DNA of 64,000 nucleotides, taken from Arctopsyche grandis (taxonomy: Eukaryota; Arthropoda; Insecta; Trichoptera; Hydropsychidae). Below the pieces are notes generated by a model. That model did not search any database. It was not told the origin of the DNA and saw only the letters and a program-made list of their open reading frames with translations. A program made the position numbers and the translations under genes. Shown here piece after piece: positions 12,901 through 37,905 of this stretch (the first letter of the stretch is position 1; each line of letters starts with the position of its first letter). The stretch covers positions 27,831,205 to 27,895,204 of the forward strand of contig NC_135361.1 in NCBI RefSeq assembly GCF_051622035.1, written 5' to 3'.

Positions 12901-15900
12901 CAGGAAGAATGGCATTGCTATATGTCACTCTAAAAATACAAATCCAGTTAAATTTATTCCACTGTTTTAAGGTTTGATATCATATGTTACACTTACGTTG
13001 AGTTGATCTTTAGTAGAGCTATGTCATTTCGCTTACTTTGTGAGCTGTACCCGGGATGTTTCTTCTTATCTACTATTTCGTAGATAAAACCTTCTTGACT
13101 ATTCAAATTCAAGGCACCCAATCTTACATATTTCACGCTGACGCATGATGAAAAAAAAAATGAGTTCACTTTAGCATTTAATTAGTTACATAATAAATTA
13201 GCGCACACAAAATATTTTATTTATTTATTTTTATTTTTTTGACCATTATGGCATTACAGGAAGAACCTAATGCGCCACAATGGCCTACACAATAAAATAA
13301 TAAAATATGATAAGATAAGAGAGGGAGAAAACAAAAATTAAATAAAAAATTAATAGATACAACAAAAAGCAAAAGTAAAAAATTAAAAAAAAAGAAAAGT
13401 AAAAAAAATAATACAGCATTTAATCTAATCATAAAAAACTTTATAGTAATTAAAATTTAAATAAGAATAAAAAATGACTTCTTAAACGAAAACCATGTGA
13501 AACGTAAAAGAGGTTAGTAAAAAATACAAATAAGGGAATGTCTTGCACCTGGAGCCTGTTCCGATAAATAAGAACAAGCTACAAATACAAAACATCCCTG
13601 CGAGGCCCAAATGGAAGAGAATAGATCAAGATACTACTCATACATCACATTCAAATTAAGAAAGTAATGATGAGCGCAGCTTACCAGATAAATATATTAA
13701 AATGATATCCGATAATCTACGCTCACCGAGGTGGAAAATATCGATATTTGGAAAATATTTTATACCAGGATCGGTCCAACCTAAGGTGACTAGATTTTTT
13801 TTATTTTATTTTTACATAGATATATACCAGGAAGGCTTGACAGGAAGACCCCAATGCGCCTTCCTGGACAATTAATTACAAACAATGCAGCATTTTATTA
13901 TTACATAAATCACTGTATTTCTAGAAGCTGAAGAACACGAAATAACAATTAATTACAGAATTAATCCATTGAGACATCTATGAATTTAGATTTTCGTGCA
14001 TAATTTTTACAAATTATACACACAATAAATACAGAAGATTTGTGACAACAGTAAAGATGATTTTTTGCCAATTTTGAGGAACCGTTTCAACAATGATCAG
14101 ATAAAATTGGCAAACTCTGATAAGAATCGATCGATTTGGAATCACAAATAACCCCAAATCTAACTAGCAGTATGGCGAATCGAACCCACTGATCACTTGG
14201 TGTTAAACATACACGCTAGCATTAAGCAATACTGCTGGCTAGATGATAGGTATAAGATGAAAGAGTCTACTACATTTAGGATTAACTTATAAAAAAATAT
14301 CTTGAGGACCACTGTATTCTTCATATATTTATTTACTTTAGCCTTACCTTAGACTTAGTATAGAGTTTCGAATTATTTAAGTGTTTTCCTTTATAACAGT
14401 GTAAGCATTGTATCAATATCATGTAAATAAAAAACACATTTGATAGACCAGAAGTAGGAAGTTTCTAAAAAATCGAAGTTGTTACCATACGATTTTTTGT
14501 ACACCACACTACTTAATTTTATATTTATATATTTTTACTTCATCTATGTACGTAGTAACAATAGATGAAGTTTTGTGATCATGCGAAAATTGGAACTCGA
14601 GATTTTGACTGATTCGAACTCTGATCACGTTTTCATGATCTAGAAAATATGTATGTGTGTGTGTATATTAGGGATTTTTTGAACACCGTTAGTCCTATCG
14701 AACTGAAACTTAGTATTGGTTACTGAAATTCTTACCGACAAGACGTAAATATTTTTCAAATATTTAAATTGACCGGAAATGGTACCTCCCCTCTTTTTTT
14801 TAGTTTTTGAATTAAATTTTGAATCGGACTGAATATATTTTATATGTAATAAAAATTATAAATTTTATAACCTTATATTCTTTACTGAAACGGAAGTAGT
14901 ACTTTTACTCTAGAGGATCGAGATTTTTTTATGTTTTTCTCAGAAACCTTTTGGTTTATTGAATTGAAATTGCATATCTGGCAATTTAAGTTTAAAACCA
15001 AGTTATTTATAAAATTTGGTAAGCATCCGTCGACCGGAAGTGGCAGTTTACTCTTGTTCGATTTTTCTTCCACTATATTTTTCGACCCTTTAAACATCTG
15101 TGATCTTCACGAAAAAAATCAAATATAATTCTTGTACCAATTCGATGAAAAGAAAAAAAAATCACTATATTTAATAAACCGGAAGTGAGATTTTTTCTTC
15201 TTAGACAGGTCAAAAATGTTGTGGCCACTATTCTGTCCACACCCCTGAACGTATCAAGCTTAAAATTTATATTTGTATTCTTTATGTACTAACTTAGAGC
15301 TGACAAGGTTTTGGTCAGAATTCATAAACCGGAAATAGTATTTTTTTTTTTACTACGGCTGAATTGTAAAAAGTAATAAGCTAGTCGATAAAATAAATAG
15401 TTTCCGGAATACTTCAGTATAAATATATGTACATATACTGGTTATCTCACCTGAATTGCCTGTTGTACATACAATGTGCAGCTGTCATGACCCATCGCTC
15501 ACTGATAAGAGTACCACCACAGTCCCATTCGATTCTTCCTATTTCTTCATTCTCATATCCAAGGGCTGCCTGAATGCATTTATTAGTTTAATCAATATTA
15601 CAGATATAAATGTGTGTGAATTGAATCTAGCTTGTTTATTTTATATTCATCTACATACATAGGTCCTATATTTTACATACATATATACAAATATACCAGG
15701 AAGGCTGAACAGGTAAACCCAAAAAGGGCCTTCCTGGTCCACATAATTATTACATAGATACATGTAAATCTAAGCAATATCTGACATCTATGGTCAGATA
15801 TTACAAACATCGTATTAATACGATAAATAACGATGAATAACTTTCATGTAACAATACGAATTTTATATTCGATAAACAACCACAGAGACTTCTATGGTGA

Positions 15901-35747: not shown

Positions 35748-37905
35748 CAGCGGTTTCCAAACTTTATGCTACTACGCCTCCCTAAAAAAAAATTTTTTTC
35801 CGCGCCTCCCTACCTTTTATTTTTTAATATATATATAATAATAATATAGACACGTTTTAAATAATAAACCTTTATTTAAAAAAAAATACTGAACACTACA
35901 ATAGACAGAATAATAAAAAGGTTTTGCTATAACATAAATTTATACGAACACGTATATTTATTATTATATTAAACTACATCTAACACATCAAAATTTAATG
36001 CGAATGATGTTGTTGTTTATTGGCACAAAGTTTATCAAATCTTGGGGGCTATATGGAGAGTGCCACTCGTAACTCCTTTTCCACTATTGACCTGGCTCGA
36101 TATTTGGTTTTCATTGCAGCTAGTGCCAAAAAGCCCGTTTCGCATAAATAAGACGTTACAAACGGTAAAAAGACTTGCATTGCTTTGCAATACAAAGATT
36201 CATACTCTCCACTAAGATTCATCCAAAATTTAATTATGGTTTCATTTTGAAACTTTTGTTTTAGTGATCTATCGCATGATAATTCTATCAATTTTTCTTT
36301 TTCGATGGTTGTCAGTTCGAATTCGTCTTCTTCATTGTGGTTAAATGGATTCTGTATACACAACAACTTTGAGAAATCAAGGTCTTTGAAATAATTGGAA
36401 AAATGCAGCACTAAACCATCCAAGTGCTCAGTAAAAAGATTTTGACTTGCTTCAATATTGGCTGTGGCCCAGAAATCTTTGGAAAGTGAAAACATATCCA
36501 ACTGATTCTTTTGTAAATTTGATTTCCATAACTTCAACTTTTTAATGAAAGCTTTTACTTTGTCTTTTTGAACAAGTGGATGGATTTGTGATCCCTGCAT
36601 TGATTTTTTTTTTTTATTGGACCATCGTGGCATTACAGGAAGAACCTAATGCGCCACAATGGCCTACATTTAACAAAGATAATACAAGTAAAAAAAAAAA
36701 CAGAAAAATTAGAAAGCAGAATAAAAAAAAATAATAAAAAGTAACAAAAGGAAAATAATAATACAAATAAAATAGTACATAAAATGTACAAAGGAGAAAT
36801 AAAAAGTAAAATAAATTAACAAAATATGAATAAAAAATAAAATCACAGCGAGGCCCAAATGGAAGAGAGTAGATTAAGATTCCACTAATTCATCACATTC
36901 AAATTAAGAAAGTAATGATGAGCGCAGGTTACCAGATAAATATGTTAAAATAACATCCGATAATCTACGCTCCCCAAGGTGGAAAATATCACATTCAGGG
37001 ACGGCAGCAACGATTTCATTGAGAAGTCGAATAGCTCTTGGAATAGGAGCCATTCGAAAAAGAACTGTGCGAGCAGCAGGTACAACCATCAAATGATGAT
37101 GTCTACCACGCACATAATTATTAGGGACATAAAGTCCCAACTGTTCCAGCAACAACGGGCATGACGTATTACCACGCAAAAGCTGGAGAACGAAACGAAT
37201 TAACGAGAAGTTTCTACGAAGTTCAAGGGAATTGTACCCAAGCATGCCCAAAAGGAAAGGAGTAGGATAGAGATATGGGTAGTACCCATACTCTTTCTTA
37301 TAAAGAAAACGAAGAAATGCTTTTTGCACTTTTTCGATAATAAGAGAGTAGTTTACTTCATGCGGATTCCACACAATCGCATTATACTCAAGCTTACTTC
37401 TAACAAGCGAGTTGAAAAGCAAGCGAGAAGACAAGGGGTTGGAGAATAATCTAGCATATCTCAAGACAAATCCAAGTCGACGAAAGGAAACGTCAGTGAC
37501 TGTCTTGATGTGGTTGTGAAAGGTGAATTGAGGATCAAAAGTGATACCCAAGTCGACCATTAATTCCACACGCTTCAACAATGCGGATCCAATGGAATAT
37601 CCGTGACAATAAAGCGAATTCGCACGTCTTATTTAAACCCCTCAATTTTCCAAAAATCTCAACCAAATAGGCAAGTTTAACAATCAAATTATTGAGAGGT
37701 TTTCTTCGAGAAAGGTTGCTAATTAAATGTGTATATAAAAATGAAAGAAAAACAAAAATAAACATTCAAGCATTGAATTTTTACTGTTAAGCTACGTTAT
37801 GAAGTTTTATTTATTTGTAGATATTATGTTATGAAAATTATTTTATTAAAAAGTTTTGGCGCCTTCCCTGGCAATAGTCCGCGCCTCCCAGTTTGGAAAC
37901 CGCTG
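35748..37905 (-). mobile_element. hAT element (SCAND3/ZBED-like), split by a LINE
   Basis: TIRs CAGCGGTTTCCAAACT / AGTTTGGAAACCGCTG and a perfect 8-bp target duplication ACTTAATA (35740-35747, 37906-37913). The minus-strand ORF 36049-36600 (about 180 codons) ends with FVTSYLCETGFLALAAMKTK, the hAT C-terminal core. Its 5' part is cut by the LINE at 36603. CGCCTCCC motifs repeat near both ends. Confidence 0.85.
36603..37622 (-). mobile_element. 5'-truncated LINE inserted in the hAT element
   Basis: Poly-T at 36605 marks the poly(A) tail. 3' hairpin at 36620-36665. ORF 36904-37581 encodes the RT C-terminal part ([51 protein letters not shown]). The sister copy at 59297-60031 differs at few positions, so the family was recently active. 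Confidence 0.85.

What the first reader, a model, noticed from the sequence alone, without database searches (positions are those of the whole stretch)
13211..37622. Local LINE and SINE share a 3'-terminal stem-loop with a conserved loop but a rewritten stem
In the LINE copies (13211, 36603, 58918) the 3' end folds as CCATTGTGGC - 21-nt loop - GCCACGATGG. In the SINEs (13794, 57828 and others) the same place reads CCAGGAAGGC - 21-nt loop - GCCTTCCTGG. Loop cores GCATTAGGTTCTTCCTGTAA and GCATTGGGGTCTTCCTGTCA agree at 17 of 21 positions while the stem sequence differs and stays paired. A second LINE (7155) keeps an analogous hairpin (GCGTTGGAGATCTCTGTAAT loop). This fits SINEs borrowing their partner LINE's RT-recognition hairpin, with compensatory stem change. 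I know of tail sharing in general, not of this pair.
Basis: partly seen in the sequence, partly recalled or inferred. Interest (0 to 1): 0.75.

Follow-up and report, generated by a model that had tools for sequence, protein, structure and literature searches.

The report
Caddisfly-like SINEs share LINE tail hairpin
In this insect DNA, probably from a net-spinning caddisfly, two kinds of short jumping element end in almost the same folded RNA tip as two kinds of longer jumping element that encode the copying enzyme, a new example of a known way in which short elements borrow the copying machinery of long ones.

Summary
The fold is a 10-bp outer stem, an internal loop, an inner 4-bp helix and a 4-5-nt cap. 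Only the middle 4 of 10 stem pairs differ between LINE A and the intact SINE stems; 3 or 4 of these differ on both sides, depending on the LINE A copy. Covariation exceeds most shuffled and all slid controls. A model built from LINE ends finds 4 of 7 SINE ends at E<7e-6; one built from SINE ends finds 3 of 3 LINE A ends at E<=3e-5, but not LINE B. Best reading: ordinary stringent-type LINE-SINE tail sharing. Loop-conserved, stem-compensated tails are published for plant L1/SINE pairs (PMC3747384); loop-specific, stem-tolerant recognition was shown for zebrafish L2 (PMC4176376). Whether LINE A or an unsampled LINE with the SINE-type stem is the partner stays open: the genome search did not complete. 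New member of a known kind.

The parts
13221..13751 (-). LINE A copy, 5'-truncated, flanked by a 12-bp target-site duplication AAAATATTTTAT (13209-13220 and 13752-13763)
13243..13283 (-). LINE A 3' hairpin (CCATTGTGGC/GCCATAATGG, 21-nt loop)
36600..37628 (-). LINE A copy with RT C-terminal reading frame 36904-37632
36622..36662 (-). LINE A 3' hairpin (CCATTGTGGC/GCCACGATGG)
58918..60213 (-). LINE A copy, RT C-terminal reading frame 59297-60103; RT-like frame fragments on the same strand continue to 60353
58948..58988 (-). LINE A 3' hairpin
50154..51105 (-). LINE A internal piece without a 3' hairpin, interrupted at about 50327-50646
   Evidence: no model hit here
7157..8411 (-). LINE B, internally deleted element inserted in a repeat whose uninterrupted relative lies at about 26852-27010
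7194..7233 (-). LINE B 3' hairpin (CCACAGCGAC/GTCACTGCGG, 20-nt loop, two A-C mismatches)
13792..14245 (-). SINE A copy (tRNA-type head, central domain, hairpin tail)
13827..13867 (-). SINE A 3' hairpin (CCAGGAAGGC/GCCTTCCTGG)
23566..23991 (-). SINE A copy, hairpin degraded (3 nt lost from the 5' arm)
31535..31994 (-). SINE A copy, hairpin at 31567-31607 with one mismatch
57831..58242 (-). SINE A copy, outer stem of hairpin 57856-57896 perfect
60830..61695 (-). SINE A copy interrupted by other sequence at about 61037-61478, hairpin altered
35044..35390 (+). SINE A relative in the opposite orientation, without the tail hairpin
4715..5171 (-). SINE B copy; second tRNA-type SINE with the SINE stem (hairpin 4737-4778) and the shared central domain
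15674..16149 (-). SINE B copy; hairpin 15696-15737
14067..14135 (-). Central domain shared by SINE A and SINE B (84% over 70 columns with 4989-5057)

Best explanation
The hairpin is the 3' recognition element of a stringent-type LINE lineage. SINE A and SINE B carry a version of it so that a LINE of this lineage reverse-transcribes their RNA. Model (inferred): the LINE protein binds the hairpin, reading mainly the conserved internal loop, the inner URGR/YCUG mini-helix and the small apical loop. The outer 10-bp stem mainly has to be paired, so it drifts by compensatory changes. The enzyme then starts target-primed reverse transcription in the tail behind the hairpin. Shown here: the hairpins, their terminal position, their covariation and the SINE and LINE anatomy. 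Inferred: protein binding, mobilisation, and which LINE is the actual partner (the first two rivals below are sub-cases of this explanation).
For: RNAalifold on 11 ends gives one structure of 14 pairs, 6 of them with a change on both sides. Counts on 11 rows: 94.0% of cells paired (shuffles 82.9%), 15 cells changed on both sides against 4.5, each with 0/500 shuffles as high; further pair types 13 against 10.1 (8/500); slid partners pair only 35-53%. With one row per family (LINE A 36k, LINE B, SINE A 13k, SINE B 4k): 96.4% paired, 6 pairs changed on both sides (4/500), covariation score 0/500. A LINE-only covariance model gives 39.0, 28.2, 27.0 and 26.8 bits for 4 of 7 SINE ends (E 7e-10 to 6.2e-6), the best hit away from the known ends being 11.4 bits; a SINE-only model gives 35.5, 31.3 and 28.6 bits for 3 of 3 LINE A ends (E 2.6e-7 to 3e-5), the best hit elsewhere being 14.1 bits. 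Sequence-only profiles give at most 15.8 bits for the same cross-matches, so the paired but changed stem carries much of the signal. Plain blastn already links LINE A 13k and SINE A 13k (74.6% over 67 nt, E about 5e-5). LINE A and LINE B proteins are only 38% identical (94/246), yet both have a hairpin with related loop. The hairpin lies 22 nt from a 12-bp target-site duplication in LINE A 13k and 37 nt from the insertion edge in LINE B. SINE A has a tRNA-like head with box A- and box B-like motifs (motifs recalled), SINE B likewise. Loop-specific recognition with exchangeable stems was shown for zebrafish ZfL2-1 and ZfL2-2 (PMC4176376, passages).
Against: 3 of 7 SINE ends score weakly or not at all with the LINE-only model (15.7k E 0.094, 23.6k E 1.2, 60.9k not listed at E<=3), below some opposite-strand palindrome hits. 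LINE B is not listed at E<=3 by the SINE-only model and was a training row of the other two models, so it was never cross-detected independently. The RNAalifold covariation term is small (-1.19 of -19.51 kcal/mol), and the count of further pair types is unexceptional with one row per family (51/500). SINE B lacks an A-rich tail. No clean SINE target-site duplications were found (best is 8 bp around SINE B 4.7k, about 14 nt upstream of the head). No protein-RNA evidence exists. Rows are related copies, so the counts are not independent events. The region between endonuclease and RT that binds the tail in ZfL2 was not found in the window's copies, which are truncated or internally deleted.
Confidence: 0.85

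Rival explanations
1. Sub-case 1: the direct donor and partner is a third, unsampled LINE of the same lineage whose own 3' hairpin has the CCAGGAAGGC/GCCTTCCTGG stem; LINE A is only its cousin, and the stem changed among LINEs rather than in the SINE.
For: SINE A and SINE B share the same intact 10-bp stem and a similar TATAT...TATGTA stretch behind it, and 5 of 7 SINE loops end CTGTCAA or CTGTTAA where LINE A and LINE B read CTGTAAT. LINE A and LINE B already differ from each other by paired stem changes, so stems do change between LINE families.
Against: No such LINE in the window: the exact stem occurs only in SINE copies. SINE A and SINE B also share a central domain, so they may have inherited one stem change from a common SINE ancestor.
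Confidence: 0.55
2. Sub-case 2: LINE A is the working partner, and the SINE stem was rewritten by compensatory changes after capture.
For: LINE A is the LINE nearest to the SINE tails in the window: the SINE-only model finds 3 of 3 LINE A ends but not LINE B. SINE B's 5' flank TATGTGGACCA resembles LINE A's TATGTAGGCCA.
Against: The shared stretch is short and the 3' flanks differ. The SINE stem is the same in two SINE families.
Confidence: 0.3
3. The hairpins are unrelated terminators or chance palindromes in AT-rich insect DNA.
For: The window is rich in repeats and inverted repeats; LINE B and the degraded SINE copies have weak energy z-scores.
Against: Similar loop, same geometry and terminal position in four families; covariation controls; cross-model detection of 4 of 7 SINE ends and 3 of 3 LINE A ends.
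Confidence: 0.02

Closest known systems
Monocot/sorghum L1-clade LINE and SINE tails (reviewed by Ohshima 2013, PMC3747384)
   Same: SINE and LINE 3' ends share a hairpin in which loop nucleotides are conserved while the stem varies with compensatory mutations (passages read).
   Different: L1-clade LINEs of plants; a UCU in the loop and a CGAG 3' flank are described as conserved there, here a 20-22-nt structured loop.
ZfL2-1/ZfL2-2 and UnaL2 stringent-type LINEs (Hayashi 2014, PMC4176376)
   Same: A 3' stem-loop read mainly through its loop; stem sequence exchangeable in two ZfL2 LINEs if paired (about half the rate for one swap), although UnaL2 stem changes reduced activity (passages read).
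   Different: Function was tested there; here only sequence. Loop sequences were not compared.
CR1-mobilised passerine SINEs TguSINE1 and PittSINE (PMC5729268)
   Same: Two SINEs with different tRNA heads share a LINE-derived tail hairpin (passages read).
   Different: Their tails are reported as highly similar to each other and CR1-derived; here 4 stem pairs differ from the sampled LINE A.
Lepidopteran HaSE1/HaSE3 with HaRTE1.1 and PxSE5 with PxLINE1.1 (PMC3272025, PMC8010984)
   Same: Insect SINEs with a partner LINE recognised by 43 bp of similar 3' end; SINEs sharing central domains (passages and one section read).
   Different: The words stem-loop and hairpin do not occur in either main text (0 hits); HaRTE1.1 is an RTE element with TGA repeats and PxLINE1.1 ends in ATGT repeats.
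Mosquito SINE Gecko with I-clade LINEs (table row in PMC3747384)
   Same: An insect tRNA-derived SINE listed with a LINE-type tail (passage read).
   Different: I-clade LINEs; its hairpin, if any, was not looked at here.

Membership tests
Stringent-type LINE/SINE pair | SINE 3' end homologous to the 3' end of a LINE in the same genome | tested here: met
   Cross-detection by family-specific covariance models for 4 of 7 SINE ends and 3 of 3 LINE A ends; clear similarity is confined to the hairpin and a few flanking bases.
Stringent-type LINE/SINE pair | Conserved 3' stem-loop with maintained pairing | tested here: met
Stringent-type LINE/SINE pair | Shared simple-repeat or A-rich terminus behind the hairpin | tested here: inconclusive
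   LINE A, LINE B and SINE A end in A-rich tails, several with (AAAT)n; SINE B ends in TATATATGTATGTA.
Stringent-type LINE/SINE pair | LINE protein requires this 3' hairpin for retrotransposition | not testable with these tools
   needs a retrotransposition or binding assay
Stringent-type LINE/SINE pair | No better partner LINE in the genome | not tested
   own-genome search unanswered in 16 attempts (first, last); within the window only SINE copies carry the exact SINE stem
tRNA-derived SINE | 5' tRNA-like head with Pol III box A and box B | tested here: met
   SINE A majority sequence has TGGCTTAATGGTAGCG and GGGTTCGATTCC, and its head folds into a long stem; SINE B 4.7k has TGGTCTAGTGG and GAGTTCGATTCC. 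Box motifs are recalled; ARAGORN finds no tRNA gene in the window.
Non-LTR retrotransposon (LINE) | Reverse transcriptase coding region, 3' UTR, target-site duplication | tested here: met
   C-terminal RT-type frames; 5 of the 15 relatives listed carry precomputed PF00078 (P0002, P0003, P0006, P0010, P0015); 12-bp TSD at LINE A 13k, the only clean one. The 3 window LINE frames scanned have no Pfam hit at E<=1e-3.
CR1, L2 or Jockey clade | Placement by RT phylogeny | not tested
   no reference RT set at hand; clade left open

The most novel reading that the evidence does not exclude
The hairpin is a modular recognition motif, an outer stem of largely free sequence plus an internal loop and an inner URGR/YCUG mini-helix with a 4-5-nt cap. 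It has stayed readable across LINE families whose proteins are only 38% identical, so the SINEs may be generalists mobilised by several LINEs of the lineage rather than by one cognate partner.
Probability: 0.2. Interest if true: 0.55.

Novelty: new member of a known kind. Interest (0 to 1): 0.35.

Why it matters
It gives a LINE-SINE set, probably from Trichoptera, in which loop and stem have evolved at different paces, a natural counterpart of the loop/stem swaps done in zebrafish L2 elements. Two searches of the held library joining SINE and Trichoptera terms (59 papers, 20 listed; 1 paper) listed no paper whose title or shown abstract describes a caddisfly LINE-SINE pair; of those papers only passages of PMC8881205 were read. 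Two LINEs at 38% protein identity with related hairpins would let one test directly what the enzyme reads.

Tried and rejected
Own-genome search for the consensus test: not completed. Scans of viral contigs for the hairpin and for LINE relatives, and of prokaryote genome contigs for LINE relatives, gave no confirmed relative. Rfam at gathering threshold: no match in the window; a permissive scan of 13200-14260 gave 2 matches far below their families' cut-offs (E 0.0097 and 0.14), taken as chance. A third hidden family in the window: after the 11 known ends and 8 opposite-strand hits on them, the next model hit has E 0.59 (53766-53824), so not pursued. The repeated GGGCCAGTTT hairpins at 42.8k and 56.1k were looked at because one search listed them; by eye they belong to another repeat without this loop. 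Pfam on 3 LINE frames: no hit. My first hand fold paired AUUA/UAAU inside the loop (note); minimum-energy and alignment folds preferred the inner URGR/YCUG helix for most copies, so I dropped the first. LINE clade assignment was not attempted. Papers on human L1/Alu 3' stem-loops (PMC5135761, PMC6510757) and a carp SINE/LINE pair (PMC2653535) were seen in search listings only.
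Full report
What is there. The window is insect DNA. The closest protein found for LINE A is an uncharacterised Arctopsyche grandis protein (P0001; 165 of 178 residues identical to the 36.9k frame). The N-terminal part of P0001 also matches another repeat frame at 62353-62598 (25 of 44), so the host is probably this net-spinning caddisfly (Hydropsychidae) or a near relative. This is inference; no record names the window.

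Families. Self-comparison gives LINE A with three 3' ends and one internal piece, LINE B with one copy, SINE A with five tailed copies and one tailless reversed relative, and SINE B with two copies. SINE A has a tRNA-like head, a body and a hairpin tail; five of the six copies are 87-96% identical to their majority sequence and the sixth (35 kb) is 74%. SINE B has a diverged tRNA-like head and a largely different body but shares with SINE A about 70 nt in the middle and the tail.

The hairpin. All 11 ends align over 65 columns. RNAalifold returns an outer stem of 10 pairs and an inner helix of 4 pairs with a 5-column apical loop. Between LINE A and the intact SINE stems the outer three and inner three pairs are identical and the middle four differ: all four on both sides against the 36k copy, three against the 13k and 58k copies, where the fourth is G-U versus A-U. 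LINE B differs again and has two A-C mismatches.

Is it more than chance? Counting pairs on all 11 ends gives 94.0% paired cells against 82.9% in shuffles and 35-53% in slid controls, and 15 cells changed on both sides against 4.5. With one row per family the figures are 96.4% against 81.8% and 9 against 3.3; the count of further pair types is not exceptional there (51 of 500 shuffles as high). Family-specific models cross-detect: LINE-only to SINE, 4 of 7 ends at E<7e-6, with 15.7k at 0.094, 23.6k at 1.2 and 60.9k not listed; SINE-only to LINE A, 3 of 3 at E<=3e-5, LINE B not listed at E<=3. Some opposite-strand hits on the palindromic stems score 13-25 bits in these searches; the best hits away from the known ends are 11.4 and 14.1 bits. 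E-values from these models are rough. Sequence-only profiles reach 15.8 bits at best for the same matches, against 39.0 with structure. LINE B was a training row in the LINE-only and joint models, so its place rests on its similarity to LINE A in the alignment, not on an independent detection.

Position. LINE A at 13 kb is bounded by a 12-bp duplication, with 22 nt between it and the hairpin. LINE B sits in a repeat whose uninterrupted relative lies at about 26.85-27.0 kb, which fixes its ends at about 7157 and 8411; a frame resembling an endonuclease start (motif recalled) adjoins the frame that begins just before the RT FADD box, so it is internally deleted. SINE duplications are not clear.

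Interpretation. This is what a stringent-type LINE-SINE relationship looks like. In zebrafish L2 elements the loop decides specificity and the stem can be exchanged if paired, at about half the rate for one of the swaps (PMC4176376, passages). In plants, SINE and L1 tails keep loop nucleotides while the stem varies with compensatory changes (PMC3747384, passages). The caddisfly-like set adds two LINEs and two SINEs to that picture. It does not show which LINE moves the SINEs. The SINE stem is the same in both SINE families and, as an exact match, absent from the window's LINE copies, which points either to one change in a SINE ancestor or to a third LINE. The own-genome search that would decide was asked for 16 times and never answered.

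Literature. Searches for SINE/LINE tails with compensatory stems (1 paper; 2 papers) returned the plant review and an unread honey bee rRNA paper. Searches joining SINE and Trichoptera terms listed caddisfly genome papers and unrelated ones; passages of PMC8881205 were read. A search naming Arctopsyche grandis (10 listed) gave one listed paper that holds the name, once; it was not read. Most subscription papers are not held, so absence from print is not claimed.

Noticed in passing
4989-5057, 14067-14135, 15967-16035, 31817-31885, 58057-58124: SINE A and SINE B share a ~70-nt central domain (81-87% identity in blastn) besides the tail; it contains GCCAATTTT...AAAATTGGC in some copies, a possible second hairpin.
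   Followed up: partly
13792-14245, 23566-23991, 31535-31994, 35044-35390, 57831-58242, 60830-61695: Two SINE A subtypes: copies at 23.6k, 57.8k and 61k carry an extra ~13 nt after box B that the 13.8k, 31.5k and 35k copies lack.
   Followed up: no
7157-8411: LINE B is an internally deleted element joining an endonuclease-like start to the RT region, inserted in a repeat with a closely similar uninterrupted relative at about 26.9k.
   Followed up: partly
62353-62598: Repeat frame (CGQSSLDNNISPKAT) that also matches the N-terminus of the annotated Arctopsyche protein P0001 (25 of 44), suggesting that its gene model is stitched from two repeats.
   Followed up: partly
20744-21099: Tandem array of a 25-bp unit (CCGGAACTGAAACAGTAATCGGGAT), about 14 copies, also reported with periods of 73 and 98.
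   Followed up: no
36049-36645: Long transposase-like reading frame (hAT-like by eye, recalled; no Pfam hit) directly beside the LINE A copy at 36.6k.
   Followed up: no
57247-57627: WD40-repeat frame (PF00400 above its cut-off), probably a host exon resembling BRWD/PHIP proteins (recalled).
   Followed up: no
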